Source of the DNA: Mogibacterium sp.
GTDB lineage: Bacteria > Bacillota > Clostridia > Peptostreptococcales > Anaerovoracaceae
Length of the DNA stretch: 64,000 nt
Reading direction: 5' to 3'
Assembly (NCBI GenBank): GCA_017431685.1
Contig: JAFRKO010000010.1
Coordinates: forward strand, 124,001-188,000
Made by a program: the position numbers and the translations under genes. The notes beneath the pieces were generated by a model. The model did no database searches and was not told where the DNA came from. It saw only the letters and a program-made list of their open reading frames with translations. Below are positions 769-55,866 of the stretch, piece after piece; position 1 is the first letter of the stretch; every line of letters begins with the position of its first letter.

Positions 769-2415
769 TTATTCTGCTACGTCAGCGTATGCCCAGTCGA
801 TATTGATGCTGAATGAGTAGAATGTTACATCCTTCATCTTAGGGCTCAGCAGGTAGGACTGGTTCCTTGCCTGGAGAGGTACCCATGCACCATCCTCGAT
901 CAGGATCTGCTCAGCTTCGTTCAGAAGATCCATTCTTGCGTCAGGATCGTCAACTTCCTTCATAGCTGCATCGAGCTTAGCGTCGAAGTCCTTGTTGCCG
1001 TAAGGTGTGTACCAGTTGATGTCTGATCTGAAGAGGTTGAGGTATGTTGTAGGGTCGTCGAAGTCAGGGCCCCATCCTGCGTATCCGATCTCATAGTCGA
1101 ACTTAGGATATACTTCGCCGTAAATGTCAGCATAAGTTACCTGACGGATGTTGACCTTGATGCCGAGAGCGTTCTGCCACTGCTCCTGCAGTACCTCAGC
1201 GATCTTCTTGTTGGACTCAGCGTCTGTTGTTACGAACTCGATCTCGATCTCGGAAGGATCAGAGATGTTGAGCTCCTTCATAGCAGCGTCGAGGTAGTCC
1301 TTAGCCTTAGCTACATCGCCTTCCATAGGGTATGCATACGAATCAACGTCGTATGTCTCGCCGTATGTCTTGCCGTCCTTGCCGGAGAGGCCAGGGAAAC
1401 AAAGCGCGTTGTAAGGATTGTAGAGTCCGCTGTTAGCAAGCTGGTTGTACTCAACTCTGTTAAGAGCATAGTTCAGAGCAAGTCTGAAGTTCTTGTTAGC
1501 CCATACAGGATTATCACTGTCAGGGTTGATGTAGCAGTAGTCTACGTTACCGTTGAGGTAGATACCGTAATCATCGTTGTCCTTGTAGTTCTCAACAACT
1601 GCATTGTCGAGTCTTACGAAGTCGAGTTCGCCGTTCTCATACATAGCAAGCTGTGTATCAGGCTTCTCAATGTAGTTGAGCTCAACTCTGTCGAGCTTGA
1701 TGTTGTCTGCATCCCAGAACTCAGGGTTCTTCTCGAATACATACAGGTTGTTCTCTGTTGATGTGAGAACAAACGGACCGGAGTATACGTTCTTGTCAGC
1801 TGTAGCAGCAAACTCATCACCGTACTGCTCTACGATGTCCTTACGGATAGGCGCAAGGTTCGACTGCATGCCGAGTGCTGAAAGAAGCACTGTCATCGGC
1901 TGATCAAGTGTGACCTCGAGAGTCTTGTCATCGATAGCCTTGATTCCGAGTTCGTCAGGATCCTTCTCGCCTGCATTTACTGCAGCAGCGTTCTTGACAG
2001 CGATGGTGTCAAGGAACCATGCGTAAGGTGACGAAACCGCAGGATCTACCAGTCTCTGCCAGCTGTAAACGAAGTCGCCGGCTGTGATAGGCTGTCCGTC
2101 ACTCCACTTAGCGTCACGCAGATGGAATGTGTAGACAGTACCATCTTCAGAGATATCCCAGGATTCAGCGATACCAGGAGTTACCTCACCGCCTGTGTTA
2201 CGGGTAAGTCCTTCTGTGATAGCATGCTGGATCTCATTATCTCCGATGCTGTTGCCCTTTGTAGGATCGAAAGTAGTAGGCTCAGTATTGACAGCATACC
2301 TGAAAACCTTTTCGCCTCCTGCAGAGCCGCTGTCACTGCCAGGTGTGCTGCAGCTTGCCAGTACACCGATGATCAGAACAGCAACCATAGCCAGAGCTAA
2401 TAGTCTCTTCTTCAT
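769..2415 (-). CDS. oppA: Peptide-binding lipoprotein of ABC transporter (OppA/DppA family, SBP_bac_5)
   Basis: Extracytoplasmic solute-binding protein that captures peptides for the permease encoded downstream. The start is set by AAGGAGG seven bases before ATG 2415; a longer in-frame reading to 2544 overlaps the promoter and is rejected. The precursor is 548 residues. A lipoprotein signal (MKKRLLALA..., lipobox LASC, Cys22) is followed by a Ser/Gly linker and the family signature around FRYAVNTEPTTFDPTKG, ITEGLTR, and WSDGQPITAGDFVYSWQRLVDP. The C-terminal FDYEIGYAGWGPDFDDP also fits the family. The promoter is at 2516-2544, and the hairpin at 671-700 separates it from oppB. Peptide specificity is not visible. 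Confidence 0.93.
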   Translation of the reverse strand: MKKRLLALAMVAVLIIGVLASCSTPGSDSGSAGGEKVFRYAVNTEPTTFDPTKGNSIGDNEIQHAITEGLTRNTGGEVTPGIAESWDISEDGTVYTFHLRDAKWSDGQPITAGDFVYSWQRLVDPAVSSPYAWFLDTIAVKNAAAVNAGEKDPDELGIKAIDDKTLEVTLDQPMTVLLSALGMQSNLAPIRKDIVEQYGDEFAATADKNVYSGPFVLTSTENNLYVFEKNPEFWDADNIKLDRVELNYIEKPDTQLAMYENGELDFVRLDNAVVENYKDNDDYGIYLNGNVDYCYINPDSDNPVWANKNFRLALNYALNRVEYNQLANSGLYNPYNALCFPGLSGKDGKTYGETYDVDSYAYPMEGDVAKAKDYLDAAMKELNISDPSEIEIEFVTTDAESNKKIAEVLQEQWQNALGIKVNIRQVTYADIYGEVYPKFDYEIGYAGWGPDFDDPTTYLNLFRSDINWYTPYGNKDFDAKLDAAMKEVDDPDARMDLLNEAEQILIEDGAWVPLQARNQSYLLSPKMKDVTFYSFSINIDWAYADVAE

Positions 2416-2515
2416 AAAATCCTCCTTGAAAAAATGTACCCTTTCCATTGATCTGCATACTGTTTTCGCATGAGCGGAATTTCTGCTGTTTATGCAAAAA
2501 CAATAATACAAATGT

Positions 2516-2544
2516 ATTTTAATCCATTTTATACCGCAGTTCAA
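2516..2544 (-). promoter_or_regulatory. Probable promoter of oppA
   Basis: Minus strand: -35 TTGAAC (2539-2544), 17-base spacer, -10 TAAAAT (2516-2521). It lies about 100 bases before the oppA start. Confidence 0.55.
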
Positions 2545-2586: not shown

Positions 2587-3681
2587 TTATTCGCCGTCAG
2601 GAACAACTATCATTTCTTCCTTAGGGTAGTTGTTGAGTGTGACGCATCCGTCCTCAGTAACGAGAACAATGTCCTCTATCCTTACACCAATGCCTTCATC
2701 GTAGAGATAAATTCCCGGTTCAACAGAGAAACACTGCCCCACTTCGATTATTTCATCGTTTGCAGACGATACATCGCCTGTTTCGTGGCATTCCATTCCA
2801 ATGGAGTGACCTGTTCTGTGTGTGAAATATTCGCCAAAGCCCTTCTCTGTAATATAGTCTCTTGCGGCCTTGTCTACATCGCTCATCTTTGCTCCCGGTC
2901 TGGCAGCAGCTATTCCGCGCTTGTTGGCCTCGAGCACTATGTTATAGATCTCCTTCTGCCTGTCGCTGTACTCTCCGATAAATACCGTTCTGGTCATATC
3001 TGAGCAGTAGTTTTTCCATACACCGCCGATGTCAAGGATGACGCAGTCTCCGTGCTTGCCCTTACTGTCATCTGTTATGTGATGCGGGTCTGCAGCTCCT
3101 CTGGCATATGCTGTTATAGGGTCGAAAGACTTGTCTTCGAATCCCTCTGCCTTGAGCAGTTCGATGCACTTTGCATTCAGTTCTTTTTCCGTAAGTCCTT
3201 TTACGACCCAAGGGATGAGCTTGCCCATCACCTTATCGAGCTTTGCGCCGGATTCCGTCATAAGCTTCTGCTCTTCTTCGCTTTTGATCTGACGCACCTT
3301 GTCAAAGATCACTGATCCGTTGCAGTACGCGCCGGCAGCGCCAAGCTCCTGCAGTCTCAGCAGGAATTTTGAAGGCAGATTCTTGTCGATGCCCAGAGCT
3401 GCGTCTTTATCTGTGAACTGTGCCATTACAGCGACACCGTCTTCAATATCATCGTAATAAGTTACAGGCACTCCCAGGTCTTCGTTCTGAGGGAAAAGTC
3501 TGTTCATGACAAAATGATTATCCCCATTGACATTGATATAAAGGGCGTGGAATCTTTCGCCAGGGAATATCCACTTTTCAATAAGATAGAAAATCGAGAC
3601 CGGGTCTGAGATGATCATCTGTGAAAGACCCTTCTCCTGCATTTTTGATGTGATTCTGTTAAGTTTGCTCTTATCCATCAT
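2587..3681 (-). CDS. M24 family Xaa-Pro peptidase (prolidase/aminopeptidase P-like)
   Basis: Cytoplasmic dinuclear-metal peptidase that cleaves the bond before proline in dipeptides or at peptide N-termini. It has 364 residues: a creatinase-type N-terminal domain (about 1-125) and a pita-bread catalytic domain. Visible metal-site motifs are DIGG and DMTRTVF (two Asp), HRTGHSIGME (His), EPGIYL (Glu) and GVRIED (Glu), all present. Two adjacent ATGs (3681 and 3678) are possible starts after a weak AGAGAGA site. It lies between the DUF3798 transporter operon, with a strong hairpin at 3731-3768 between them, and oppA. That context suggests it handles imported proline-containing peptides. Whether it is a prolidase or an aminopeptidase P cannot be decided. 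Confidence 0.88.
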   Translation of the reverse strand: MMDKSKLNRITSKMQEKGLSQMIISDPVSIFYLIEKWIFPGERFHALYINVNGDNHFVMNRLFPQNEDLGVPVTYYDDIEDGVAVMAQFTDKDAALGIDKNLPSKFLLRLQELGAAGAYCNGSVIFDKVRQIKSEEEQKLMTESGAKLDKVMGKLIPWVVKGLTEKELNAKCIELLKAEGFEDKSFDPITAYARGAADPHHITDDSKGKHGDCVILDIGGVWKNYCSDMTRTVFIGEYSDRQKEIYNIVLEANKRGIAAARPGAKMSDVDKAARDYITEKGFGEYFTHRTGHSIGMECHETGDVSSANDEIIEVGQCFSVEPGIYLYDEGIGVRIEDIVLVTEDGCVTLNNYPKEEMIVVPDGE

Positions 3682-3792: not shown

Positions 3793-5145
3793 TTAGCCGG
3801 CGATCACTGTCTGATCTGATGCAGCTTCTTCCGGCATCTTCAGCTGTGCTCTCTTGTTTGCACGCCATACGTACAGTCCGAGTGACAGGCCGATAACGCC
3901 GTATACCATGAATGTACGGAAGTATTCACCGAGAGCCGCCTGACCAAACAGGGCTTTACCTATTTCAGGGCTCAGGATGAACATCGCATGGAAGAGAAGG
4001 CATCCGGTGATGGACTGTCCGATGGTGGCCTTGTCTACCGAAGCTCCTCCTACCAGGATGGCAGCAACTGAGAAGTAACCTACGTTGTTATGCGCGGTGT
4101 ATGTGTTCAGTGTTCCCATGTTCTGGAGATAGATTACCATTCCCCACGCAGCAAGAACAGTTGAAATAATAGTCGCGATTACACGTGTGCGGTTAACGTT
4201 GATTCCGTTAGCCTCAGCGATATTCTGGTTCATTCCGCATGAACGGAAATCCTGACCGAGCTTTGTATTCATGATCCATCTGATGAATACTGCCAGTACG
4301 GCAACTACCAGCATCAGCACTACAGGTACGTCACGTACCTTGTTAAGAACGCTGCCGGTAACAAGCTGGATGACGAAGTATACCATCACAGCAACGCAGA
4401 GCAAAGTATATACAGCAAACGCGAGGATGTTGAGCCTGGTCGAACGTCCGTCTGCCTTAGGTTTGCGCAGGAACTGGTTCCAGAGAAGGAACAGCAGTAT
4501 GACTGCGGATGCCCCTATCATGAACGGAACAAACGGTATCTGCAGTATCTTGTCGAGGGAGTAAGTTACACTTCCCATGTCGACGCTCATACGGATACCA
4601 ACGCCATCATACAGGATCATAGGGTGGCTGAGCGCTACAGGTATGACTGCTCCGATAACGAAGAGTACGATGAACTGATAAACACCGTTACCGAAGTAGC
4701 CTACAATGAGTGAGGCTATCATCTCCTGTCCTTTGGTTTTGTTATAGAGCGTTCCTGTGAGCCATCCGATTAGAACCGCGATAGGCAGCGAGATCAGAAT
4801 CATCAGAAGGAAACCTGTGAGACCGCCGAATGACTGCTCATTGGCAGCTATACCCCAGTAACGTACTGCTATGACTGCGAGCTGGCCCGCGATAGCTCCT
4901 ACAACGATACCGAAGTTGAGTCCCAGACCGGCAACTACCGGGATGATCAGTGACAGGATCAGGAAGATGTTACGGTAAAATCTGTTGCACAGCTCCGTAA
5001 AAAATCCGTCCATTGTGAGATTCTGTGCTGTCAGAAGACCCAGGATGATGAAGGCCCAGAACAGTATGGTTACTATATGGTCGAGTATCCATGTTTTAAG
5101 GTCGAATGAAGGCTGACCTGTGACCTTTGCAATCCAGTTATTCAT
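3793..5145 (-). CDS. ABC transporter permease (BPD_transp_2 type) of the DUF3798 system
   Basis: Integral membrane permease of 450 residues with about ten hydrophobic segments. It belongs to the ribose/branched-chain/nucleoside permease superfamily, as shown by the conserved coupling stretch around DFRSCGMNQNIAEANGINV and the ILVGGASVDKATIG motif. It is paired with a second permease (5145-6194), overlapping by one base in a TAATG junction, with GGAGGTGA before its ATG. With the ATPase (6187-7806) and DUF3798 lipoprotein (7954-9201) it makes a complete importer. The substrate is unknown; similarity to sugar and nucleoside permeases does not fix it. Confidence 0.88.
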   Translation of the reverse strand: MNNWIAKVTGQPSFDLKTWILDHIVTILFWAFIILGLLTAQNLTMDGFFTELCNRFYRNIFLILSLIIPVVAGLGLNFGIVVGAIAGQLAVIAVRYWGIAANEQSFGGLTGFLLMILISLPIAVLIGWLTGTLYNKTKGQEMIASLIVGYFGNGVYQFIVLFVIGAVIPVALSHPMILYDGVGIRMSVDMGSVTYSLDKILQIPFVPFMIGASAVILLFLLWNQFLRKPKADGRSTRLNILAFAVYTLLCVAVMVYFVIQLVTGSVLNKVRDVPVVLMLVVAVLAVFIRWIMNTKLGQDFRSCGMNQNIAEANGINVNRTRVIATIISTVLAAWGMVIYLQNMGTLNTYTAHNNVGYFSVAAILVGGASVDKATIGQSITGCLLFHAMFILSPEIGKALFGQAALGEYFRTFMVYGVIGLSLGLYVWRANKRAQLKMPEEAASDQTVIAG

Positions 5146-6194
5146 TAACGGTCACCTCCACTCTTTACTTTTGTCAATGCGTACAGGATTACACCATTCT
5201 GGATGATGATACGCATGATATCCGAAAGGTCTGTTCCTGTGAACAGCTGGTTCATTACCGGCATAGCCGTTGTCATCAGGCCCTGGAAGAGGCACACACC
5301 TATCAGTACGTTAGGTATGCTTGCCTTGCTTGCAGTAGCGCCTCCTACGAGTACGGCAGCAACTGCAGGGAACGCCATGTTCAGCGGTCCGTTATACAGC
5401 TGGGCATATCCGTAACCCTGTGAGTAGATGATGATGCCGATACCGGCTAATATTGTTGAAATGATATTTGCGATAACGCGGTTACGGTCAATGTTGAGAC
5501 CGGATGCTTCAGCGAATCTCGGGTTCTGTCCTCCGGCAAAGATGGCCATACCTGTCTTTGACTGGAAGAACATCCATACGAGGAAGCAGAACAGTGCGAA
5601 TACGAGCATCATGCCGAATGGTATCGCAACGCCTGCGATCTCGATCTTCAGAAGATCTGAAATGATTCTGCTGGCGTTGAAGTTCTTGAACTGAATAGTT
5701 TCTCTGAGTCCGTTTCCGAGCATCCAGCCCATCTTACGGTTGGAGAACGGAATAGCGAGCCAGAAAATGTTGAAGAACGCTACGATAGAGAATCCGGAGT
5801 ATGTAGCGATGGTCATCTCCGCGCCTTTTACAGCGTTCATCAGCTTGCCGTAAAGCCATCCGAGGATGGTGCAGAGCACTATGCTGAGAAGGAGCGATGT
5901 GAAGATGAGGAACCATCCGCTGAAGTCAAACTGCATGCAGATCATAAGAGCCATGAGTCCGCCTTCGATACCCACAGGCAGAGCGAAGTTAGGACCTGTT
6001 CCCGACTTGATGGCAGGCACCATCGCGAGTACAAGAAGACCGTTCATGCCTACACGGTTCAGAATATCGGTGATCAGTGTCGGTATGGACTGGCCCTGTA
6101 CACCGGCAGTTATCAGCAATACCAGCAGCAGTAATCCGACCGCAAAGGTTGGAATGCCGATCCTGTTGATCGCTTTTCCTATTGAATTAGTCAT
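5145..6194 (-). CDS. ABC transporter permease (BPD_transp_2 type), second subunit
   Basis: Membrane permease of 349 residues with the same fold as its neighbour at 3793. The core motifs are FAEASGLNIDRNRVIANIIS and AAVLVGGATASKASIPN. The start is placed at ATG 6194 because GGAGG lies eight bases before it; a longer reading from 6212 would put that site inside the gene. The gene overlaps the ATPase stop by 8 bases, so translation is probably coupled. The heterodimeric permease arrangement resembles sugar/nucleoside importers, but the DUF3798 binding protein marks a separate family whose ligand is not known. Confidence 0.88.
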   Translation of the reverse strand: MTNSIGKAINRIGIPTFAVGLLLLVLLITAGVQGQSIPTLITDILNRVGMNGLLVLAMVPAIKSGTGPNFALPVGIEGGLMALMICMQFDFSGWFLIFTSLLLSIVLCTILGWLYGKLMNAVKGAEMTIATYSGFSIVAFFNIFWLAIPFSNRKMGWMLGNGLRETIQFKNFNASRIISDLLKIEIAGVAIPFGMMLVFALFCFLVWMFFQSKTGMAIFAGGQNPRFAEASGLNIDRNRVIANIISTILAGIGIIIYSQGYGYAQLYNGPLNMAFPAVAAVLVGGATASKASIPNVLIGVCLFQGLMTTAMPVMNQLFTGTDLSDIMRIIIQNGVILYALTKVKSGGDR

Positions 6195-7806
6195 TCGGAC
6201 CACCTCCTGCATTCATAGAAGCTTCGATCGCTTCTTCTTTTGTCATGCCGGACATCATCATGCCGTAAACTTCATCTGAATCTGTAGGTGACAGCTCACC
6301 GGCGACTTTACCCTCGCATATGATAAGAACTCTGTCGCAGATGCTTCGGAGCTCTGCGAGCTCAGAGCTTGTCATGATAATTGTCATGCCCTGCTCTTCA
6401 GCCAGAGTCTTGAGAAGATCGAGTATCAGCTTTTTGGCTCCGATATCGATGCCTCGTGTAGGCTCAGATACCAGCAGCAGATCAGGATCAAGTGCAAGAG
6501 CTTTGCCGACGCAGACTTTCTGCTGGTTACCACCTGACAGCGCACCCGCATTCTGTGCTATGGAAGTACAGCGGATGTCGAGGTCCTTGACCATCTTCTC
6601 TGCGTTTGCCTTGATGGCAGCTGTATCTGTAAAGGTGAATGGTCCGATTTTTTTGAGGAACTTGCCCTGAACCTCCATAGCGTTGAATGCTATATTGAGG
6701 TCGATAGGACTCGTAAGCAGGAGACCTACGCCCTTTCTGTCTTCTGACAGGAAGGCGATTCCCTTCTTCAGTGTCTCATCTGTTTTGGAGACATCTAGCT
6801 TTTCGCCCTTGAATGTGACATCTCCTACTACCGGGTACATGCCCATAAGGCCATTGGCAATACCAAGCTTGCCCTGACCGGCAAGGCCTCCGATACCGAG
6901 GACTTCGCCCTTGCGTACGCTGAATGTTACGCCCTTGACTTCCTCACCCGGCATATTGACAAGAAGATTATTGACTTTAAGTATCTCCTCGTCGCTGATC
7001 TTTCGCTCAGTCTCTGAACGATCAAGAGTAAGTGCACGGCCGACCATGAGACGAGCTATCTCAGCGGCTGTAATATTTTTTGTTTCTTCTGTGGCTACCC
7101 ACTCTCCGTCACGGAGAACGGTAACTCTGTCGGATAATCTGATGATTTCATCAAGACGATGGCTGATGAAAATGATACCGATGCCCTGCGCAGCCAGTTT
7201 GCGGATCGCATCGAGCAGATGCTCGGTTTCGCTTTCTGTCAGAACTGCAGTAGGCTCGTCGAATACCAGGAAGCGTATACCGGTCTTATCGATCTCACGA
7301 GCGATCTCAACGAACTGCATGTGTCCGACAGGAAGGCCATGGACCCTGGTGTACTCCTCGATATCCATACCCATGGTGTCGAGGGCTTTTCTGGCATCCT
7401 GAGCCATGTGTTCGTGGTCGAGTGTCTCGAGTCGCTTTCCGAAGATCTTGGACATAGCTGAGCTCTTCGTAGTCTCACGGTTGAGCTTGATGTTCTCAGT
7501 GATGGTGAATCCCGGTATAAGCATGAACTCCTGATGCACCATGCCGATTCCGGCTTCCATGGCATCATGCGGGTTCATGATGTTGGCATTTTCGCCACCG
7601 ATACGCACCTCTCCCGTGAATCCACCTGTTTCGTGGATAACCGGCATACCGAACAGGATGTTCATCAGTGTGGACTTACCCGCGCCATTTTCACCGATCA
7701 GGGCGTGGATCTCGCCCGGACGTACGTCCATGTTGATCCCCTTCAGAACGGCATGACCCGAGTATTCCTTTCCGACATTGATAAATTCAAGAATCCCGTT
7801 GTTCAA
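6187..7806 (-). CDS. ABC transporter ATPase with two nucleotide-binding domains, DUF3798 system
   Basis: Cytoplasmic ATPase of 539 residues, built like MglA/RbsA. The first domain has Walker A GENGAGKST (about residue 38), Walker B FLVFDEPT and the H-loop ISHR. The second has an altered P-loop (GGLAGQGK), signature LSGGNQQK and Walker B LLVSEPTRGID. One active and one degenerate P-loop is normal for this family. No ATG exists near the N-terminus; the reading begins at TTG 7806 after AAAGGGGAT. It follows the binding-protein gene after a hairpin (7879-7908) and overlaps the next permease by 8 bases. Confidence 0.9.
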   Translation of the reverse strand: MNNGILEFINVGKEYSGHAVLKGINMDVRPGEIHALIGENGAGKSTLMNILFGMPVIHETGGFTGEVRIGGENANIMNPHDAMEAGIGMVHQEFMLIPGFTITENIKLNRETTKSSAMSKIFGKRLETLDHEHMAQDARKALDTMGMDIEEYTRVHGLPVGHMQFVEIAREIDKTGIRFLVFDEPTAVLTESETEHLLDAIRKLAAQGIGIIFISHRLDEIIRLSDRVTVLRDGEWVATEETKNITAAEIARLMVGRALTLDRSETERKISDEEILKVNNLLVNMPGEEVKGVTFSVRKGEVLGIGGLAGQGKLGIANGLMGMYPVVGDVTFKGEKLDVSKTDETLKKGIAFLSEDRKGVGLLLTSPIDLNIAFNAMEVQGKFLKKIGPFTFTDTAAIKANAEKMVKDLDIRCTSIAQNAGALSGGNQQKVCVGKALALDPDLLLVSEPTRGIDIGAKKLILDLLKTLAEEQGMTIIMTSSELAELRSICDRVLIICEGKVAGELSPTDSDEVYGMMMSGMTKEEAIEASMNAGGGPND

Positions 7807-7878
7807 AACGTATCCCCTTTCATTGTCTGTAGTTGAATAGTTGTCTGATCAGTCTAATAAATCCTTATAAGGTAATAA

Positions 7879-7908
7879 GCAGGGACACCGCATCAGCGGT
7901 GTCCCTGC
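7879..7908 (-). terminator. Hairpin between binding-protein and ATPase genes
   Basis: A perfect 13-bp stem (GCAGGGACACCGC / GCGGTGTCCCTGC) closes a 4-base loop. No U-run follows on the minus strand, so read-through into the ATPase is likely. It is probably an attenuator or stabiliser that lets the binding protein be made in excess. Confidence 0.7.
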
Positions 7909-7953
7909 GGTCTTACTTAATCTTGATTATTAAACTTGATTGATCCTAAAGGA

Positions 7954-9201
7954 TTATCTGTCCCTTGTCGGCTCACCGAAGTTCAGGAATCCCTGGAGAT
8001 ATACGAGGTAGTTGTCGAACTTCTCGTGTGAATCCGGATCTTCGTAAGGAACGAGGCTAACCTCTGTGTTGCAGTAATCAGCAATCAGATCCTGGATGGT
8101 CTGTGTGTCGCACTTGTCAACTTCGCCATTCATCCAGAGGAATGCGTACTCTGTGCAGGCAACTGTGTTAGCGATGGAAGCAGGTACACTCCATGTTGAG
8201 AAGTGTCCGCTGAGTCCGTCCTCTTCGAGCTTTGTGTTGATAGCGTCGATAGTTGTCTGGAGACCGTTTACGAGGTCCTCAGGGCTCTCGATACCAAGAG
8301 CACTCGGGAATCCGTGGTATGGGCTCGGGCAGCATGGGAGTGCATAGTATGCACCGCTGTCATGAACAGCCTCGATCAGAGGAACCTGCATAGCGCAGTT
8401 TGTTGAGAAGAAGCATGTGTCCTGTCCATACTTCTCAACCATCTTTGGAACATCCTCGAGGATGAACATCTGAGCACCGGAAACTCCTGCGTCGGATGTT
8501 GGGTCTGGAGCTGTAGCGTCTACGAATTCGATTCCGAGCTCTTCGCACTTAGCCTTGATGAGGTCACGGCATCCTGCGAGTGGAGCCTGTGCCATGTGAC
8601 GTGGGAAGCTGTAGTGAACGAATGTCTTGCAGCCCATGTCATAAGCCTGCTGAGCGATAGCTGTACCTTTGTTGATCTCATCGATCGAGAGGATGATGTC
8701 TGCACGCTTAACGATATCGTCAGCATTCTCCTGTGGTGTGCAGTATGCGATCAGAAGATCGTCTTTCTCTCTTGACTCAAGCACCTTGTCGATAGCAGCA
8801 TTCGAGCCCGGGCAAGCCTGGTTGATAATGATAGCCTTATACTCAGGGTCTGCGCCGTACTTGCTTACTACAGCAACGAACTGCTCCTGCTCTGTCATGA
8901 AGTTGTCAGGCATTACGTCGTGAGTAATGCGGTCTGAACCATACTTCTCGACCATGAAATCAGCCGAACGGAACTCTTCCTCGTTCTGTGAAAGAGTATT
9001 CGTGATGATAGCGATCTTACCTTCGCTTGCATCTCTTGCAGCCATTACTCTCTGCTCAAGTTCGCTGAGTTCTGCTGCTGCTGATTCTTCTGCTGCAGGC
9101 TCTTCTGTATCAGCTGCTCCGGAATCCTTGGATCCGCATGCTGTCATTGAAAGAACCATGAGCAGTGCTACCAGCAGGCAAAGTAATTTCTTCATCTTCA
9201 T
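7954..9201 (-). CDS. DUF3798-family substrate-binding lipoprotein
   Basis: Predicted extracytoplasmic binding protein of 415 residues and first gene of its importer operon. The lipoprotein signal ends at Cys22 (LSMTAC), followed by an acidic Ala/Glu linker. The body reads as a periplasmic-binding-protein fold (GKIAIITNTLSQNEEE, YKAIIINQACPG, ADIILSIDEINKGTAIAQQAYDMG) and matches what I know as DUF3798 proteins of Clostridia. The ligand is undescribed. AAGGAGG lies ten bases before ATG 9201; an in-frame ATG two codons later is an alternative. Its promoter carries a palindrome (9316-9347), so a regulator probably senses the substrate. No regulator gene lies next to it. Confidence 0.85.
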   Translation of the reverse strand: MKMKKLLCLLVALLMVLSMTACGSKDSGAADTEEPAAEESAAAELSELEQRVMAARDASEGKIAIITNTLSQNEEEFRSADFMVEKYGSDRITHDVMPDNFMTEQEQFVAVVSKYGADPEYKAIIINQACPGSNAAIDKVLESREKDDLLIAYCTPQENADDIVKRADIILSIDEINKGTAIAQQAYDMGCKTFVHYSFPRHMAQAPLAGCRDLIKAKCEELGIEFVDATAPDPTSDAGVSGAQMFILEDVPKMVEKYGQDTCFFSTNCAMQVPLIEAVHDSGAYYALPCCPSPYHGFPSALGIESPEDLVNGLQTTIDAINTKLEEDGLSGHFSTWSVPASIANTVACTEYAFLWMNGEVDKCDTQTIQDLIADYCNTEVSLVPYEDPDSHEKFDNYLVYLQGFLNFGEPTRDR

Positions 9202-9403: not shown

Positions 9404-9419
9404 TCAGATAATTATCTGA
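9404..9419. repeat. Perfect 16-bp palindrome at the end of the GH127-like gene
   Basis: TCAGATAATTATCTGA is its own reverse complement and spans the stop codon at 9412. With no loop it cannot be a terminator. It may be a protein-binding site or chance in AT-rich sequence. Confidence 0.4.
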
Positions 9420-11133
9420 AATAAATATGATATTTTTCTTTATCGATGCGGAACAGAGGCAGATAGTGCGTTTCTCCGTCAGTGAACGTTCCTCTGCCGC
9501 CGTCTGCAGACTCGTAAAGTTTAGAGATATCCGGATGAATAAATTCTGAGGAACCGGATATCGCAGCCAGCATATAAGGTCCCCATGCGATATTATAGTA
9601 CCCGCTGTCAGAAACCGCCGTTATGATCTGCAGCTTCATTGGCATCTCAAAAGTCACATTCTCTCCCGCTTTCAGTCTGCCGCAGTAAATATAACCATCC
9701 GCTGCATCCGGGAAGTCTTCCCTGGCCCATGCAGGGATCCTAACAGCCAGTTTTCTTTTCATGTCAGCGCCGGCTTTTATTATAAGCCTGCCGCCATCAG
9801 ACATCATTACAGTCAGTTTCTCTTCATCGTCAAGCACTGAAGGAACAGGTAGATTTACCCGCACAAGGGAATCGTCTTCCTCACCCTCGTATGAATAAAT
9901 ATCGGCCATGAACCTGAACCTGCTCTCCATACCCGTCCCATGGCAGCAGCTGTTCTCTTCCGTCTCATAGTGTTTGCAGCTGCCCGGCGCAAGCGGCATG
10001 AAGTACGTAGTGCCGCCGTCGCTGCAGTGACTGTGCGACATGAGTATGTGATTGAAAAGAGTCAGCTCATAGTAATCCATGAGATCGCAGCGGGCCTGCG
10101 TTTCGTATTCGAACAGTTTTGACGTGAGCCTCAGCATGTTTACGCTGGCGCAGCTTTCAGCTGTTTTCTCCGTCAGATATTCGCACTCGCTGTCCGCTGC
10201 CCGGAACCTTTCCTCATCGCCCACGCCTCCTATGGAATAGCAGTGATGCCCGGTCACGATGCTTACGAAGTTGCGCGCTATATCAAAGCAGTCTCTCCTG
10301 CCTGTTGCGGCATAAAGTTCAAGTGCTCCCGTGATCTGAGGTATATGCTGGTTGGCATGCATGCCGTCAAGCTCATCCCTTCCGGCAGCCATCTGGCCAA
10401 AGAGCCTTGCATTCTCAAACATGCCGGCAGCCTTGAGGTACTCTCTCTTTCCGCTTATCCGGTGAAGCCTCACGAGAGTCGCTATCATGGCTCCATATTC
10501 GCCGGCGATATATGTGTCCCACATCTTCGCCCTTGTTTCGTCGGGTACGCGTGAAAGGCGTTCGTATATCCAGTCCCCGAGCGGTATGAGTGCTTCTTTT
10601 GCCTGATCAATGCCGGCCAGCTCATACGCGTCCAGCAGTCCGGACATTATCTTGTCGAGCGTATAGTAAGGTGCCCATATTTCCGGATACGGTGTCAGCT
10701 TCTCGAGCAGATCAAACTGCTCTTCATCATATGCACTCAGAAAACCCGGATGAACTTTTCCGGATAAAGCAAAAGCCTTCTGGCATTCAGCCAGACCCTC
10801 TGTCAGAGCTTTCGCTTTTTCTCTGAACCGGATTTCTCCTGTTGCCGCATATGCCAGCGACACCGCGGACAAATAATGCCCTGTAGTATGGCCTTTCAGC
10901 TTGCAGTCTTCCGCATCCCACCCTGTCATCGGTGCGGCATCGCCCACAGGCAGCCCTGCAGCCTTTCTGAAGTTGTAGAGCATGCTGTCCACATCCTGCT
11001 TTGCAAGAAATGCAAGCATGTGCTGCTGGCTGTCGCAGAACGGTGAGCCGGGCAGAAGCCTTACTCTGCTGATTTCCGGATGAGTCCTTTCAGGTAGTAC
11101 CATATCTTTTACCCGTCGTGTCTGTTCATCCAT
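9412..11133 (-). CDS. DUF1680/GH127-type glycosidase (probable beta-L-arabinofuranosidase)
   Basis: Predicted cytoplasmic retaining glycosidase of 573 residues with no signal peptide. An (alpha/alpha)6-barrel N-terminal part includes KLKGHTTGHYLSA and EIWAPYYTLDKIMSGLLDAY. The family active site is visible: a Glu-x-Cys pair in TEKTAESCASVN, and adjacent Cys396-Cys397 in NSCCHGTG. In characterised GH127 enzymes these act as zinc ligands and the cysteine nucleophile. A small beta-sandwich C-terminus follows. It overlaps the proline iminopeptidase gene by 25 bases if ATG 11133 is used; ATG 11103 is an alternative. Known GH127 members remove beta-L-arabinose from hydroxyproline-linked arabinosides, which fits the adjacent hydroxyproline genes. 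DUF1680 covers several GH families, so specificity is inference. Confidence 0.85.
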   Translation of the reverse strand: MDEQTRRVKDMVLPERTHPEISRVRLLPGSPFCDSQQHMLAFLAKQDVDSMLYNFRKAAGLPVGDAAPMTGWDAEDCKLKGHTTGHYLSAVSLAYAATGEIRFREKAKALTEGLAECQKAFALSGKVHPGFLSAYDEEQFDLLEKLTPYPEIWAPYYTLDKIMSGLLDAYELAGIDQAKEALIPLGDWIYERLSRVPDETRAKMWDTYIAGEYGAMIATLVRLHRISGKREYLKAAGMFENARLFGQMAAGRDELDGMHANQHIPQITGALELYAATGRRDCFDIARNFVSIVTGHHCYSIGGVGDEERFRAADSECEYLTEKTAESCASVNMLRLTSKLFEYETQARCDLMDYYELTLFNHILMSHSHCSDGGTTYFMPLAPGSCKHYETEENSCCHGTGMESRFRFMADIYSYEGEEDDSLVRVNLPVPSVLDDEEKLTVMMSDGGRLIIKAGADMKRKLAVRIPAWAREDFPDAADGYIYCGRLKAGENVTFEMPMKLQIITAVSDSGYYNIAWGPYMLAAISGSSEFIHPDISKLYESADGGRGTFTDGETHYLPLFRIDKEKYHIYFR

Positions 11134-12005
11134 CTGATCAGTTCAACACAGTAATCATCGTGCCTGTCGACAAAGCATGTATGCCTTGCTCTCTCCCACA
11201 GGATCCACTCAGAACCCTTTATTCCGTCGTGCATTGTCTTTGCAACGAGCGGCGAGCAAAGGTCCGAAATACCGCTCATAATAAGCGATGGCACTTCTAT
11301 CTCGCCAAGACGGTCGACATATTCAAAATCTTTAAGGGTGCCTGTAGGTGCAAATTCATTCGGACCCCATCCGTATACGTATGCTTCCCTGCCTGCCTTT
11401 TTAGGCCTGGTGCAGCAATCCGGAAGGTCCTTCTCCCAGTAATCGCAGTACCTTGCCATGTATTCCTCAACAGCAGCATCATAGGCCTCGCCGCTGAAAT
11501 CTCCTGTCTCAAGTGCATGACGGATCGCTTCCTGCATTTCTGCAGGCATCATCTCTATCCTGCGAAGGCCCTCCTTCTCCCAGAGGCTGCTCGAAGGATG
11601 ACCGCTCGAGATGATAAAACTTTTTACACCTTTTGTCTGTTCTTTGTAATCTATACCGAGGCATATCTGCATCATCCCGCCCCACGACTGACCGATTATA
11701 TGGCATTCATCCAGTCCAAGGTGTTCCCTGAGCGCAAAGAGCTCGCTCATCCAGGTCTCTTTCGTCCAAAGCTCAGGATGGCCTTCAATGTAAGAAAGTC
11801 CGCACCCCAGCTGGTCATACATTACCACCATTCGGTCGTCTTCATCCGCTACATTGTCGAGCACTTCAAAATAGTTGTGAGTGCTCCCCGGGCCGCCATG
11901 CAGGCAGATAAGCGGAGCTTTTCCGTTATCCTTTCGGCTGCCGGCTATCCTGTAATATGTTTTATATCCCATAAAAGGCATGTAGCCTTCTGTTATTGCT
12001 GCCAT
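11109..12005 (-). CDS. pip: Proline iminopeptidase (S33 alpha/beta hydrolase)
   Basis: Cytosolic serine peptidase of 298 residues expected to release N-terminal proline (and in some members hydroxyproline) from short peptides. Hallmarks are the oxyanion motif CLHGGPGSTH (about residue 34), strand VVMYDQLGCGLS, nucleophile elbow IGQSWGG (Ser about 106), a cap domain, then the acid (SGISDLCSP) and His (ERARHTCF). GGGAGGA precedes ATG 12005. It is the first gene of a two-gene unit with the GH127-like enzyme, after the terminator of hypD. The peptidase-glycosidase overlap suggests a joint role on glycosylated proline-rich peptides. Confidence 0.87.
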   Translation of the reverse strand: MAAITEGYMPFMGYKTYYRIAGSRKDNGKAPLICLHGGPGSTHNYFEVLDNVADEDDRMVVMYDQLGCGLSYIEGHPELWTKETWMSELFALREHLGLDECHIIGQSWGGMMQICLGIDYKEQTKGVKSFIISSGHPSSSLWEKEGLRRIEMMPAEMQEAIRHALETGDFSGEAYDAAVEEYMARYCDYWEKDLPDCCTRPKKAGREAYVYGWGPNEFAPTGTLKDFEYVDRLGEIEVPSLIMSGISDLCSPLVAKTMHDGIKGSEWILWERARHTCFVDRHDDYCVELIRWMNRHDG

Positions 12006-12045
12006 TTAATCATCCTCCCCCGGGAATCTATTATATAAACAACAA

Positions 12046-12073
12046 CAGGCCGGACCCATAAAGAGCCGGCCTG
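12046..12073 (-). terminator. Terminator after hypD
   Basis: Stem CAGGCCGG / CCGGCCTG with a 12-base loop, followed on the minus strand by TTGTTGTTTATATAA. It separates hypE-hypD from the peptidase-glycosidase pair. Confidence 0.75.
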
Positions 12074-12136
12074 TATATTAACACCTGTATAATGCTTCAG
12101 ATGCCGGACCTTTTCACTTCTTAAAGTCCGCAGCTT

Positions 12137-14509
12137 TTAGAACGACTGAGCCGTTCTGTTGATGATCTCATTCTGAAGTTCTTCGTCGAGATTTCTGAAG
12201 TAGTCGGAGTAACCTGCTACGCGGACGATCAGATCCTTGTAATCATCAGGATGCTTCTGCGCTTCGAGCAGTGTCTCCTTATCAAAGACGTTGAACTGGA
12301 TGTGATGACCATCCATAGCAAAGTATGATCTGATGAGGCTTGCCAGGTTCTCGAGTCCTGTATCGCCTGCAAGAGCGCTCGGAGTGAACTTCTGGTTCAG
12401 AAGAGTTCCGCCTGTTGAGCAGTGATCCATCTTTGCGCACGACTTGATAACAGCTGTAGGTCCGTGTGTATCAGCGAATTTCTCTGGCGAGATACCCTCG
12501 GATACAGGCTTTTTAGCGAGTCTGCCATTAGCTGTAGCGCCGATGACTTCGCCGAAATAGATGTGGCATGTCGTAGGCAGCATGTCTACGTGATACTGGC
12601 CGCCGCTCATTGTAGGACGTCCTGTTACCTCGTCTCTGTACTGTCTGAAAACATCCTGCATGATATCGTCAGCATAGTCGTCGTCGTTACCGTACTTCGG
12701 TGTCTTGTTCTGCACCATGTTGAAGATCTCCTCGTGACCGACGAAGTTGTCGTCCATTGCTGTCATGAGCTCCTTCATGGTGAAGTTCTTCTTGTCATAT
12801 ACGTTGTATTTGATTGCAGCAAGGCAGTCTGTTACTGTTCCGATACCAACGCCCTGGATGTATCTGGTGTTGTATCTTGAACCGCCGTTGTTGTAGTCCT
12901 TGCCCTTCTTGATGCAGTCGTTTGTTACGATCGACAGGCATGGAGCAGGCATGTACTTAGCGTAGAGCTTTTCGATTACGTTGTTTCCGCGAACCTTTAC
13001 GTCTACCATGTGCTTCAGCTGGATCGTGAAAGCGTTCCAGAGCTCTTCATATGTTTCGAAGTCCCATGCATAACCGGTCTCAGGTCCGAGCTGCTTTCCG
13101 CTCTGATCATCGAATCCGTTGTAAAGAGTCAGCTGGAAGATCTTAGGGATGTTGAGGTATCCGGTAAGGATGTAAGCCTCATTTCCCCAGGAACCGGTCT
13201 CAACGCAGCCGGATGATCCGCCCTGACGTGCGTCTTCAAGAGTCTTTCCTGCGTTCAGCAGCTCCTGTACGATCTCATCAGTGTTATAGAATGCAGGCTG
13301 TCCCCATCCCTTTCTCGAGATCTCGCAGGCTCTCTTGAGGAACTTATGAGGAGTCTTCTTGCTTATCTGTACGTTCGAGTTAGGCTGAACGAGCTTCATC
13401 TCGTCCATGCAGTCGAGGATGAGATAGCTGACAGCGTTTACGCCGTTTGTACCGTCTTCCTTGATTCCGCCTGTATTGATGTTGGCAAAGTCTGTATAAG
13501 TGCCGCTCTCCTTGAGAGTTACGCCGACCTTGACAGGTGCAGGCTGGTTGTTGAACTTGACCCAGAGGCACTCAAGGAGCTCAAGAGCTCTTTCGTCATC
13601 GAGTCTGCCCTCTTTGACGTCCTTCTGATAATACGGATACAGATGCTGATCGAGTCTTCCCGGGCTGAAAGCGTCCCAAGGGTTGAGCTCAGTAGTAACA
13701 GCAAGATGTGTGAACCAGTAAAGCTGGATAGCCTGCCAGTAAGTCTGCGGAGCATGAGCAGGTATTACGTCCAGGTTTGCAGCCATCTGCTCGAGTTCTG
13801 CCTTGCGTACAGGATCCTCGCACTTTTCCGCCTCTGCCTTAAGCAGCTTCTGATATCTCTCGCCAAGGATCATTACTGCGTCGCAGTCGATAAGCATGGC
13901 ATCGAGCTCGTCTTTCTTGTCTACCGCTTCAGGATCGTTCATGAAATCGAGAGCATCGATAGCTGCCTGTATCTCTTCCTTATAATCAGCGTATCCCTTG
14001 ATGAATACGTTCTTGCCGCCGCATGTGTGTCCAGGGCCTCTCTGCTCCATGAACTCCGTGAACATACCGGCCGCATAGCACTTTCTCCACTCATGAGTCA
14101 TGCCTGCGATCAGCTTGTCTCTCATTGACTTGCCCTTCCAGTAAGGGATGATGAGCTCTTCCTGATCTTTGAGATCCTGCTTTGTCACACTGTAGTTAAC
14201 GACAGCACGGTCGTTCATGATGTACATGTCCTCGATAGTGTGGCATGTGAGCTCAGGGAAGGTAGGTGAAGACTGAGGGTCCTTGCCCTTTTCACCAACA
14301 ATGAGCTCACCTTCGCCGAGGTAGAGAGTCTTCTTGCTGAAATACTCCTTGAGCACGAGAGCTCTCAGTACAGGAAGGGATACCTTGTCTTCCCATTTCT
14401 TGTAAACTTCAGTCTCGATTATCGCTCTTTCAAGATCGATGTGAGGCTGAGTCTCCATGCTGACCTTTCTCAGAGCTTTGATCCTTGCGTTCATTCCACG
14501 TTCTTCCAT
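12137..14509 (-). CDS. hypD: trans-4-hydroxy-L-proline dehydratase (glycyl radical enzyme)
   Basis: Oxygen-sensitive cytosolic enzyme that dehydrates trans-4-hydroxy-L-proline to 1-pyrroline-5-carboxylate. It is 790 residues, the usual HypD length. The glycyl-radical loop is RVAGYSD near the C-terminus (Gly766). The thiyl-radical cysteine lies in GSSGCVETG (Cys435, Glu437), which is the HypD form of this motif; choline and glycerol lyases carry GCVEP instead. Long stretches (TTELNPWDAFSPGRLDQH, VKFNNQPAPVKVGVTLKES) also match HypD as I remember it. GGAGG precedes ATG 14509. The activase gene lies 17 bases upstream in the same unit. Expression is probably controlled by the palindrome at 15465-15484. 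Confidence 0.92.
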   Translation of the reverse strand: MEERGMNARIKALRKVSMETQPHIDLERAIIETEVYKKWEDKVSLPVLRALVLKEYFSKKTLYLGEGELIVGEKGKDPQSSPTFPELTCHTIEDMYIMNDRAVVNYSVTKQDLKDQEELIIPYWKGKSMRDKLIAGMTHEWRKCYAAGMFTEFMEQRGPGHTCGGKNVFIKGYADYKEEIQAAIDALDFMNDPEAVDKKDELDAMLIDCDAVMILGERYQKLLKAEAEKCEDPVRKAELEQMAANLDVIPAHAPQTYWQAIQLYWFTHLAVTTELNPWDAFSPGRLDQHLYPYYQKDVKEGRLDDERALELLECLWVKFNNQPAPVKVGVTLKESGTYTDFANINTGGIKEDGTNGVNAVSYLILDCMDEMKLVQPNSNVQISKKTPHKFLKRACEISRKGWGQPAFYNTDEIVQELLNAGKTLEDARQGGSSGCVETGSWGNEAYILTGYLNIPKIFQLTLYNGFDDQSGKQLGPETGYAWDFETYEELWNAFTIQLKHMVDVKVRGNNVIEKLYAKYMPAPCLSIVTNDCIKKGKDYNNGGSRYNTRYIQGVGIGTVTDCLAAIKYNVYDKKNFTMKELMTAMDDNFVGHEEIFNMVQNKTPKYGNDDDYADDIMQDVFRQYRDEVTGRPTMSGGQYHVDMLPTTCHIYFGEVIGATANGRLAKKPVSEGISPEKFADTHGPTAVIKSCAKMDHCSTGGTLLNQKFTPSALAGDTGLENLASLIRSYFAMDGHHIQFNVFDKETLLEAQKHPDDYKDLIVRVAGYSDYFRNLDEELQNEIINRTAQSF

Positions 14510-14526
14510 TTTTTCCTCCGTCCGGC

Positions 14527-15450
14527 TTAACCGCCGATCTTTACATTAGCAAAACCTGCTTTATTCCACTGTTTAACGAATGATTCCATTTCCTCATCGG
14601 ACGGTGCCGTCAGATCTTCTGCAGGATAATCGCGTCCGAGCTTACCGTATTTGTGAGAACCTGTGCTGTGATATGGCAGAAGATTCACCTGAGGCGTCTG
14701 TATGCCGTTCTCTTTCAGGAAATCTATGATCTGTGCCATGGATTCCGGGTCCCCGTTAACTTCTTTGATGGTCGGTATCCTTATGTAAATGCGGGCGCCT
14801 GCCTTCGCGATTTTCTTAAGGTTATCGAGGATGAGTCTGTTGCTTACGCCGATATACTTCTTGTGTTTGTCTTCATCTATCGCCTTGATGTCGTACAGCC
14901 ATGTATGAACATACGGCAGTATGGCCTCAAAGTTGCTGTAAGGGGCCTGTCCGCATGTGTCTATGTCAACGTCTACTCCTTCGCGGTAAAGTGTCTTTAC
15001 CAGAGACTTTATATAGCCGGAGTCCATCGCCATCACTTCTCCGCCCGACAGTGTGACACCGCCTCCTGACTGTTCGTAAAACATCTGATCCTGCATGCAG
15101 ATCTTAGCGAGCTCTTCGACAGTGTATTCCCTGCCGACCAGCACCCTGTAGTTTCCGAGACATGCGTCAACGCATTTGCCGCACCTGATGCATTTTGAAC
15201 GGTCGATGAGAGACTTTCTGCCGCCTTCCGCCGGCTCTGACATTGTAATTGCGCCTGTCGGACAGACTGCTTCGCATCTGCCGCATCCGGTGCACTTCGG
15301 CGTGTCTATCTGAAGCTCTGATTCAAACTTCTGAGTCTCGGGGTTGTGGCACCACCAGCATCTCAGCGGGCAGCCCTTAAAGAAGACTGTTGTTCTGATA
15401 CCGTCTCCATCATGTATTGAATATTTCTGTATGTTTGTAACTGCGTTCAT
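14527..15450 (-). CDS. hypE: Glycyl-radical enzyme activase for HypD (radical SAM)
   Basis: Radical-SAM protein that installs the glycyl radical on HypD. It is 307 residues. The S-adenosylmethionine cluster motif is CPLRCWWCHNPE (about residue 30). Two ferredoxin-like [4Fe-4S] motifs follow (CTGCGRCEAVCP and CIRCGKCVDACL), then GGGVTLSGGEVM. This is the dicluster activase layout of HypE-type and other non-PFL activases. ATG 15450 is chosen because the mapped promoter would start mRNA near 15490; a longer reading from GTG 15489 would begin at or before that point. No clear Shine-Dalgarno site is seen before this ATG, which is odd. First gene of the hypE-hypD operon. Confidence 0.9.
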   Translation of the reverse strand: MNAVTNIQKYSIHDGDGIRTTVFFKGCPLRCWWCHNPETQKFESELQIDTPKCTGCGRCEAVCPTGAITMSEPAEGGRKSLIDRSKCIRCGKCVDACLGNYRVLVGREYTVEELAKICMQDQMFYEQSGGGVTLSGGEVMAMDSGYIKSLVKTLYREGVDVDIDTCGQAPYSNFEAILPYVHTWLYDIKAIDEDKHKKYIGVSNRLILDNLKKIAKAGARIYIRIPTIKEVNGDPESMAQIIDFLKENGIQTPQVNLLPYHSTGSHKYGKLGRDYPAEDLTAPSDEEMESFVKQWNKAGFANVKIGG

Positions 15451-15464
15451 AATAATAAGCCAGG

Positions 15465-15484
15465 TTTTAGACCACGGTCTAAAA
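15465..15484. promoter_or_regulatory. Palindromic operator, probable TetR site
   Basis: TTTTAGACC-AC-GGTCTAAAA: two perfect 9-bp arms with a 2-base centre. It lies just downstream of the hypE -10 box, covering the transcription start, and next to a TetR gene. This is the position expected of a repressor site. Confidence 0.75.
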
Positions 15485-15496
15485 ATCACTGGCTAT

Positions 15497-15526
15497 ATTA
15501 TACCTTTTCATGTGATTGATGCGCAA
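15497..15526 (-). promoter_or_regulatory. Promoter of hypE-hypD
   Basis: Minus strand -10 TATAAT (15497-15502), 18-base spacer, -35 TTGCGC (15521-15526). The operator palindrome begins 12 bases beyond the -10. Confidence 0.7.
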
Positions 15527-15534
15527 CAGAATAA

Positions 15535-16110
15535 TCACGCTTTTTTAAGGCCCTGCATCAATTTAGGGAAGATTCTCTTACTGAATTCACCGAGTGAAAA
15601 GCTTCCGTTGTTCATGCACCACTCGGTTACAAGCGCTCTTTCTCCCATGCTGAAGTATCTGACCATTTCGCTTACCGACATTTCATCAGTCAGTTCGCCG
15701 CTTTTCTGGCCATGCTCCATTATTTTCTCGATGTATCTGTAATAATATCTGTTGCGGTTCAGCAGAGCCGAGAAGCTCTCTTTTACGATCTGTGCGGAAT
15801 ACAGGTATGAGAGAAGTCTGTAGTCCATATTCTTTTCCATGAAAGAATGCACTTCATAGTTCAGCCAGATGAGCTTATCGAAACAGCTCAGTCCTTCCGG
15901 TTCTTCCCCCTCCAGCCTCTCGTATTCGCGGTCAAGAACCTCGGAAAGCGTGCTGAGCAGATCGTCCTTGCTGTTGAAATAGTAATAGAACGTTCCCTTT
16001 GATATATCCGCTTCTCTGATTATGTCGTTTATAGTTGTTTCAGCGAAGCCCTCTTCATAGAAAAGCTTCCATGCTGTTTTAATGATCTTTTCTCTTGTGT
16101 TTTTTGCCAT
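15535..16110 (-). CDS. TetR/AcrR-family transcriptional regulator
   Basis: DNA-binding regulator of 191 residues. The N-terminal HTH is typical (TTINDIIREADISKGTFYYY, residues about 20-45). The all-alpha C-terminal ligand domain is not recognisably related to a known sensor. GGAGATC precedes ATG 16110. It lies 33 bases after ddl on the same strand, so it may be read through from ddl. The palindrome and promoter of hypE-hypD follow directly after its stop. I infer that it represses hypE-hypD, with hydroxyproline or a relative as the possible inducer. The ligand is not shown by the sequence. Confidence 0.88.
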   Translation of the reverse strand: MAKNTREKIIKTAWKLFYEEGFAETTINDIIREADISKGTFYYYFNSKDDLLSTLSEVLDREYERLEGEEPEGLSCFDKLIWLNYEVHSFMEKNMDYRLLSYLYSAQIVKESFSALLNRNRYYYRYIEKIMEHGQKSGELTDEMSVSEMVRYFSMGERALVTEWCMNNGSFSLGEFSKRIFPKLMQGLKKA

Positions 16111-54879: not shown

Positions 54880-55866
54880 CTATCGGTCCTCTCTGAAGTA
54901 CGGCAGTCCGAGAGCTTCAGGAGGTTGATTTTCGTGTCTGTTTCTAAGGCTTATAGCGATCAGTACGATGATCGTTACAAGGTACGGAAGCATTTTGTAA
55001 ATCTCTTTGACAGCAAAGTTTGCACCTGTAGGGATATACAGATAGAGAATGTATAATCCTCCGAAGAGCATCGATTCCCAGATAGCCCAGTTAGGACGCC
55101 AGATCGAGAAGATTACAAGTGCTATCGCAAGCCATCCTCTGTCTCCGAATGCATCGTTTGACCATACTCCGCTTGCGTAGTCGAGCACGTAGTAGAGTCC
55201 GCCGATTCCCGCGATCATGCAGCCGATGCAGATCGAGAAGTATTTGTATCTGTTGATATTGATACCGGCGGCATCTGCTGTAGCAGGGTTCTCACCTACA
55301 GCCCTCAGTTCAAGTCCTGTACGGGTCTTCTTCAGCATATATGATGTGAAAATAGCGATAGCGATTGCCACATATGTCATAAAGCTGTAAGACAGCAGCA
55401 GCTCGCCTACAACTCCGGCTTTTCCTGCGAACGGCAGCGAGGTCTTGAATGCCTTACTGGTAGCAGAAAGAATGATCGATGGAACTTCACTGCCGGTCAG
55501 CTTCATGATAGATCCGCCGAAGAAGTTTCCGAAACCGACACCGAAGGTCGTCATGGCAAGTCCTGTTACGTTCTGGTTTGCCCTGAGTGTTACTGTCAGG
55601 AAGCAGAAAAGCAGTCCCATCAGCAATGAACCCAGCATACAGCACAGTATCGGTATCAGCAGACCTATTACAGGATTAAAATTCGCTGCAGAGTTTTCAT
55701 AAATGAATGATCCTATTACTCCGGATATGGCTCCTACATACATGACACCCGGAATACCGAGGTTAAGGCTGCCGGCTTTTTCGTTCAGTGTCTCACCTAC
55801 GCAGCCGAGCAAAAGCGGTACGCTTTGTACGATAGCTCTTGGTATAAATGTTACAAGACTAAACAT
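54880..55866 (-). CDS. Nucleoside ABC transporter permease (NupQ type)
   Basis: Membrane permease of 328 residues of the BPD_transp_2 family. The pattern GETLNEKAGSLNLGIPGVMYVGA near the N-terminus and ELRAVGENPATADAAGININRYKY in the coupling region is typical of the BmpA-linked nucleoside/purine importers. It overlaps the previous permease by one base (TGATG) with GGAAAGGAGG upstream. It pairs with the 370-residue-class permease at 55866-56969. Together with adenine deaminase downstream this importer most likely brings in purine nucleosides or bases. Confidence 0.9.
   Translation of the reverse strand: MFSLVTFIPRAIVQSVPLLLGCVGETLNEKAGSLNLGIPGVMYVGAISGVIGSFIYENSAANFNPVIGLLIPILCCMLGSLLMGLLFCFLTVTLRANQNVTGLAMTTFGVGFGNFFGGSIMKLTGSEVPSIILSATSKAFKTSLPFAGKAGVVGELLLSYSFMTYVAIAIAIFTSYMLKKTRTGLELRAVGENPATADAAGININRYKYFSICIGCMIAGIGGLYYVLDYASGVWSNDAFGDRGWLAIALVIFSIWRPNWAIWESMLFGGLYILYLYIPTGANFAVKEIYKMLPYLVTIIVLIAISLRNRHENQPPEALGLPYFREDR

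What the first reader, a model, noticed from the sequence alone, without database searches (positions are those of the whole stretch)
9412..16110. Candidate utilisation system for arabinosylated hydroxyproline peptides
A GH127-type glycosidase overlaps a proline iminopeptidase gene, next to HypD/HypE (hydroxyproline dehydratase and activase) and a TetR regulator, with a peptide importer, an Xaa-Pro peptidase and an orphan importer close by. Established: characterised GH127 enzymes release beta-L-arabinose from hydroxyproline-linked arabinosides of plant extensins, and HypD turns free hydroxyproline into pyrroline-5-carboxylate. Inference: imported Hyp-arabinoside or glycopeptide is deglycosylated and trimmed in the cytosol and the freed Hyp is fermented. 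The glycosidase has no signal peptide, which fits cytosolic action. I know of no described locus joining GH127 to HypD.
Basis: partly seen in the sequence, partly recalled or inferred. Interest (0 to 1): 0.75.

Follow-up and report, generated by a model that had tools for sequence, protein, structure and literature searches.

The report
Arabinosyl-hydroxyproline peptide utilisation gene cluster
A gut bacterium carries a conserved gene set that looks built to import sugar-capped hydroxyproline peptides such as those of plant cell walls, strip the sugar inside the cell and break down the hydroxyproline; the set is real and recurs elsewhere, but no activity has been measured.

Summary
HypD, HypE and a proline iminopeptidase pass curated cut-offs and adjoin a PF07944 glycosidase. 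One correction: by profile, active site and predicted fold the glycosidase is GH146-like, not GH127. That helps the reading: two characterised GH146 enzymes act on Araf-beta-Hyp (PMC10850190, PMC6085000). The cluster runs on past the window edge with OppBCDF and two M24-type peptidases; four related species add an adjacent P5C dehydrogenase homologue. GH-HypD linkage sits in 11 of 80 loci and needs at least three changes on the glycosidase tree. In the genus, OppA at 79% identity or more occurs in 9 of 47 genomes, all of them glycosidase carriers. Best reading: Opp imports O-arabinosylated Hyp peptides, the cytosolic GH146 removes arabinose, peptidases free Hyp, HypD makes P5C. AraA was not found in 4 of 5 linked genomes, so the sugar may be a cap rather than food. 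Against: 5 of 10 carriers keep the glycosidase away from HypD, HypD presence is not significantly associated with it (p 0.17), and the substrate is inferred.

The parts
15535..16110 (-).
   Evidence: homologue next to HypE in L014 and L016; in G010 (L157)
14527..15489 (-). HypE, activase of HypD (start codon as called is probably too early)
   Evidence: NF043069 431.7 bits, cut-off 425, match from residue 15
12137..14509 (-). HypD, trans-4-hydroxy-L-proline dehydratase (glycyl radical enzyme)
   Evidence: NF043068 1441.8 bits, cut-off 1100; ungapped alignment to 6vxc; ten functional residues kept
11109..12005 (-). Proline iminopeptidase
   Evidence: NF045945 443 bits, cut-off 400
9412..11133 (-). 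GH146-like beta-L-arabinofuranosidase, no signal peptide seen
7954..9201 (-). DUF3798 protein, putative lipoprotein binding protein of an importer
   Evidence: PF12683 323.8 bits; 3qi7 E 1.1e-27
6187..7806 (-). Importer ATPase with two ABC domains (sugar-type)
5145..6212 (-). Importer permease, BPD_transp_2
3793..5145 (-). Importer permease, BPD_transp_2
2587..3681 (-). M24 peptidase, Xaa-Pro type by similarity (below equivalog cut-offs)
769..2544 (-). OppA-type peptide-binding protein; OppBCDF and two M24-type ORFs follow outside the window

Best explanation
A catabolic cluster for O-arabinosylated hydroxyproline peptides, most plausibly from plant extensin-type glycoproteins. (1) OppABCDF imports Pro/Hyp-rich peptides, some carrying Araf-beta-Hyp; (2) the signal-less GH146-like cysteine glycosidase removes L-arabinofuranose from Hyp in the cytosol; (3) M24 peptidases and the iminopeptidase release free trans-4-Hyp; (4) HypD, activated by HypE, dehydrates Hyp to pyrroline-5-carboxylate (P5C); (5) a P5C dehydrogenase (in relatives) or P5C reductase carries it on. 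Shown: family identity and active-site residues for steps 2 and 4, family identity for 1, 3 and 5, conservation and recurrence of the set, Opp/glycosidase co-occurrence. Inferred: substrate, linkage cleaved, order of deglycosylation and peptide cleavage, regulation.
For: HypD/HypE identity and functional residues. Glycosidase nearest in score to Bll4HypBA1 (263 bits) of five references, the enzyme said to act on Araf-beta-Hyp (PMC10850190 introduction); it shares Gln-His after HAN with Bll4HypBA1, where the beta1,3-specific Bll3HypBA1 has Thr-Thr. Linked cluster in 5 of 10 carriers in the genus. HypD within about 10 kb in 11 of 80 loci, at least 3 changes on the tree; OppB orthologue in 18 of 80, at least 5 changes. 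OppA at 79% or more in 9 of 47 genomes, all carriers, Fisher p 7e-9; P5C dehydrogenase in 8 of 47, 7 of them carriers, p 1.4e-5 (kinship ignored). Opp of carriers is followed by M24 ORFs also where it lies away from the glycosidase (4 of 4 fetched). ProC in the Muricomes cluster and in L233.
Against: No activity measured. Five of ten carriers have the glycosidase away from HypD, and two carriers (G008, G013) have no HypD over the cut-off. HypD: 8 of 10 carriers against 21 of 37 others, p 0.17. None of 25 other HypD regions in the genus has the glycosidase or an Opp orthologue, though several are short contigs. The window genome itself has no P5C dehydrogenase match at E 1e-150. In the family of Muricomes 8 of 13 OppB orthologues show no glycosidase nearby, one of them on a contig too short to tell. 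GH146 also holds enzymes for arabinan and AGP termini; references lie on long branches, so subgroup placement is unsure.
Confidence: 0.68

Rival explanations
1. The glycosidase cleaves beta-L-arabinofuranosides of arabinan, arabinogalactan or RG-II fragments for the sugar; its place beside HypD is shared plant-wall context or chance, and the Hyp genes serve unglycosylated peptides.
For: Characterised GH146 BT0349 and Bll3HypBA1 act on such glycans (PMC10850190). Five of ten carriers have it away from HypD. The window genome and four other carriers have AraA.
Against: HypD linkage arises in three separate clades and Opp linkage in more; co-occurrence with a peptide importer rather than a sugar importer in the genus; AraA not found in four of five linked genomes; best match is Bll4HypBA1.
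Confidence: 0.2
2. The cluster mainly serves collagen- or gelatin-derived Hyp peptides; the glycosidase is a passenger or serves an unrelated minor glycoside.
For: HypD, Opp and M24 genes occur together without the glycosidase (L182; L233). Among 13 OppB orthologues in 348 genomes of the Muricomes family the glycosidase is near in 5.
Against: Arabinosyl-Hyp is a plant modification (PMC10850190); record titles of relatives name goat and sheep gut among others; repeated pairing argues against a passenger.
Confidence: 0.1

Closest known systems
HypD/HypE trans-4-hydroxy-L-proline dehydratase pathway (PMC7077986; passages seen)
   Same: HypD passes the equivalog model and keeps the ten tested residues; HypE passes its model.
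   Different: Here joined to a GH146-like glycosidase, an iminopeptidase and a peptide importer; in passages searched in that paper the words plant, glycoside, arabin and gene cluster gave no hit.
GH146 Araf-beta-Hyp hydrolases Bll4HypBA1 (BLLJ_0089) and XeHypBA1 (PMC10850190 sections read; PMC6085000 abstract and passages)
   Same: GH146 family, catalytic and zinc residues, best score to Bll4HypBA1.
   Different: Only 31.6% identity to Bll4HypBA1; XeHypBA1 has a signal peptide of 43 residues and was not compared by sequence. Next to HypD and a peptide importer here.
Bifidobacterium longum beta-L-arabinooligosaccharide system (HypBA1 GH127, HypBA2 GH121, HypAA GH43 and an importer; PMC7263609 abstract start in a listing, PMC10850190 sections)
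   Same: Plant Hyp-rich glycoprotein arabinosides as target, ABC import.
   Different: That system releases sugars outside the cell and imports them; here the peptide is inferred to be imported and the amino acid used. The window enzyme is not GH127.

Membership tests
GH146 | Sequence and predicted fold closer to GH146 than to GH127 | tested here: met
GH146 | Zn-Glu-Cys3 site, Cys nucleophile and Glu acid/base | tested here: met
   E326, C328, C396, C397, E308; same letters in all 80 rows compared (residues from PMC10850190).
GH146 | Beta-L-arabinofuranosidase activity, here on Araf-beta-Hyp | not testable with these tools
   Needs a bench assay.
GH127 | Closest relatives in GH127; GH127 middle and C-terminal Pfam domains | tested here: not met
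   only PF07944 in the window enzyme, while the GH127 of L114 also has PF20736 and PF20737.
HypD (trans-4-hydroxyproline dehydratase) | Passes NF043068 and keeps thiyl Cys, glycyl radical Gly and substrate residues | tested here: met
HypD activase | Passes NF043069 | tested here: met
   431.7 against 425, a narrow pass.
Proline iminopeptidase | Passes NF045945 | tested here: met
   443 against 400.
B. longum beta-arabinooligosaccharide system | GH121 arabinobiosidase and GH43 partner enzymes | not tested
   Not sought in the whole genome.

The most novel reading that the evidence does not exclude
Some gut anaerobes import intact O-arabinosylated Hyp peptides and deglycosylate them in the cytosol not to eat the sugar but to uncap the amino acid for HypD. 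The arabinose would be a discarded protecting group, since AraA was not found in 4 of the 5 linked genomes. Plant extensins would then be a direct Hyp source for HypD bacteria of herbivores.
Probability: 0.4. Interest if true: 0.75.

Novelty: new variant of a known kind. Interest (0 to 1): 0.6.

Why it matters
[quoted passage not shown] A recurrent cluster tying HypD to a glycosidase family that can cleave Araf-beta-Hyp and to a peptide importer gives a direct, testable route from plant Hyp-rich glycoproteins to Hyp fermentation, and predicts deglycosylation of imported glycopeptides inside the cell.

Tried and rejected
GH127 membership: rejected. HypD as another glycyl radical enzyme: rejected, the next models score 618 bits or less against 1441.8. 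HypD/glycosidase co-occurrence across the genus: tested, not significant. Glycosidase confined to genomes with HypD: false (G008, G013). Opp confined to carriers: true for OppA at 79% or more (9 of 9); three further genomes have OppA matches at 53-56% without the glycosidase (G025, G030, G046), and G040 has a 3.4-kb contig with OppBCDF at 93-99% and no glycosidase, possibly a stray contig. Chance adjacency: my rough arithmetic (one HypD per genome of some Mb, about 20 kb looked at per locus) gives well under one of 80 loci; no formal null was run. The letter Gln at the Thr631 position in all rows is partly built in, because MHANQHI was one of the two scan patterns; only Bll4HypBA1 is free of that. 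Literature: no paper listed joins bacterial HypD to GH127/GH146. Lists (20 of 73; 15 of 156; 10 of 123) were capped; searches found none; one search found two papers, both on Aspergillus flavus from their titles. The library lacks most subscription papers; the 2023 paper on Bll4HypBA1 was not seen and is cited through PMC10850190. The sequence of XeHypBA1 was not fetched. The fold comparison covers only Foldseek's own matches.
Full report
OBSERVATION. The window is G000:C28:124001-188000. Its relatives carry record titles such as Mogibacterium sp. from goat and sheep gut, others uncultured Clostridiales or Lachnospiraceae. In transcript order: TetR-type ORF, HypE, HypD, proline iminopeptidase, glycosidase, DUF3798 importer (four genes), M24 peptidase, OppA. 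HypD, HypE and the iminopeptidase pass curated equivalog cut-offs, HypE narrowly. HypD aligns without gaps to C. difficile HypD and keeps the ten residues changed in the mutants listed in passages of PMC7077986. Beyond the window edge follow OppBCDF and two M24-type ORFs (L151). The M24 proteins score below the Xaa-Pro equivalog cut-offs, so their exact type is open.

CONSERVATION IN THE GENUS. Of 47 genomes, 10 hold the glycosidase and 29 a HypD over the cut-off. In five (G000, G010, G016, G036, G042) glycosidase, iminopeptidase and HypD lie together. In G016, G036 and G042 the order is HypE-HypD-iminopeptidase-glycosidase-P5C dehydrogenase-Opp genes; G010 has the same parts with the DUF3798 importer and M24 between HypD and the iminopeptidase. 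The dehydrogenase of G036 passes NF002852 (679.3 against 648); the others are 95-98% identical to it. In the other five carriers the glycosidase lies elsewhere. OppA at 79% identity or more is in 9 of 47 genomes, all carriers; three more genomes have 53-56% matches and no glycosidase. In the four carriers where Opp lies away from the glycosidase (G008, G014, G018, G032) it is followed by an M24-type ORF. P5C dehydrogenase: 8 of 47, 7 of them carriers, not in the window genome. Fisher tests: OppA 7e-9, P5C dehydrogenase 1.4e-5, HypD 0.17 with 8 of 10 carriers against 21 of 37 others; kinship is ignored in these. In 25 HypD regions from the 24 other genomes over the cut-off plus G003 (below it), several on short contigs, no glycosidase and no Opp orthologue was seen; the iminopeptidase was near in three. 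In the family, 349 genomes and 92 genera, only 11 genomes of 2 genera matched the glycosidase at 1e-60.

RECURRENCE OUTSIDE THE GENUS. The genome-contig scan kept 80 of 95 loci. A HypD homologue lies within about 10 kb of the glycosidase in 11 of 80: five close relatives of the window (L053-L056 and L058; four of them are genomes named above), four Lachnospiraceae-type loci (L091 Muricomes intestini, L093, L096, L105) and two Defluviitaleaceae MAG loci (L114, L117; termite origin is my recollection). HypD of L091 and L117 and of the genomes of L093 and L105 passes the cut-off; L114 holds only the first 161 residues, and L096 was judged by 71% identity. An OppB orthologue at 60% or more is near in 18 of 80. 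On a quick ML tree of 85 rows the HypD linkage needs at least 3 changes and the Opp linkage at least 5. L091 runs HypE-HypD, ProC, a TetR homologue, NrdG2, glycosidase, OppABCDF. L114 combines HypD-HypE, a DUF885 protein, a true GH127 (4qjy at 2.7e-221), a sugar-type binding protein and the GH146. L233 has OppBCD, an M24-type ORF, HypE, HypD and a P5C reductase without a glycosidase; L182 has HypE-HypD and M24-OppABCDF-M24 without one. The peptide-to-HypD part therefore also exists alone. In 348 genomes of the Muricomes family, 13 OppB orthologues were found; 11 neighbourhoods were fetched and two are known from L091 and L103: glycosidase near in 5 of 13, HypD in 3 of 13, one contig too short to tell. 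Some of these are the same loci as.

SUGAR FATE. AraA (PF02610) is in the window genome but was not found in the other four linked genomes; 5 of 10 carriers have it. The four drafts are 79-95% complete, and other arabinose routes were not sought.

MECHANISM AND LIMITS. Best reading: Opp imports Pro/Hyp peptides, the GH146 removes Araf from Hyp in the cytosol, M24 and iminopeptidase enzymes free Hyp, HypD makes P5C. Enzyme identity and conservation of the set are shown; substrate, transport and flux are inferred. The DUF3798 importer (3 of 47 genomes, all carriers) sits in the same DUF3798-ATPase-permeases-M24-iminopeptidase run in G010 and G014 and probably handles a related proline or Hyp compound; this is inference. 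No paper listed in my searches joined bacterial HypD to GH127/GH146 (some lists capped).

Noticed in passing
L114:1-18081: A Defluviitaleaceae MAG locus joins HypD-HypE, a DUF885 protein, an AraC-type regulator, a true GH127, sugar-type importer genes, the GH146 and a DUF5695 protein: a fuller candidate extensin-arabinoside cluster.
   Followed up: partly
3793-9201: DUF3798 binding protein with sugar-type ABC importer genes, present in 3 of 47 genus genomes and always with M24 and iminopeptidase genes; substrate unknown.
   Followed up: partly
25594-54798: Several molybdenum hydroxylase-type genes with amidohydrolases, a xanthine/uracil permease family gene and an adenine deaminase-type gene: looks like purine catabolism.
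   Followed up: no
54880-59926: A second importer with a PnrA-like (Bmp) binding protein, ABC ATPase and BPD_transp_2 permease next to the purine-type genes.
   Followed up: no
L095: A contig titled Buttiauxella warmboldiae holds a glycosidase homologue (51% best segment) that groups with Lentilactobacillus rows in the tree; transfer or contamination not decided.
   Followed up: no
L181 (G040:C123): OppBCDF at 93-99% identity to the cluster's Opp on a 3.4-kb contig in a genome without the glycosidase.
   Followed up: no
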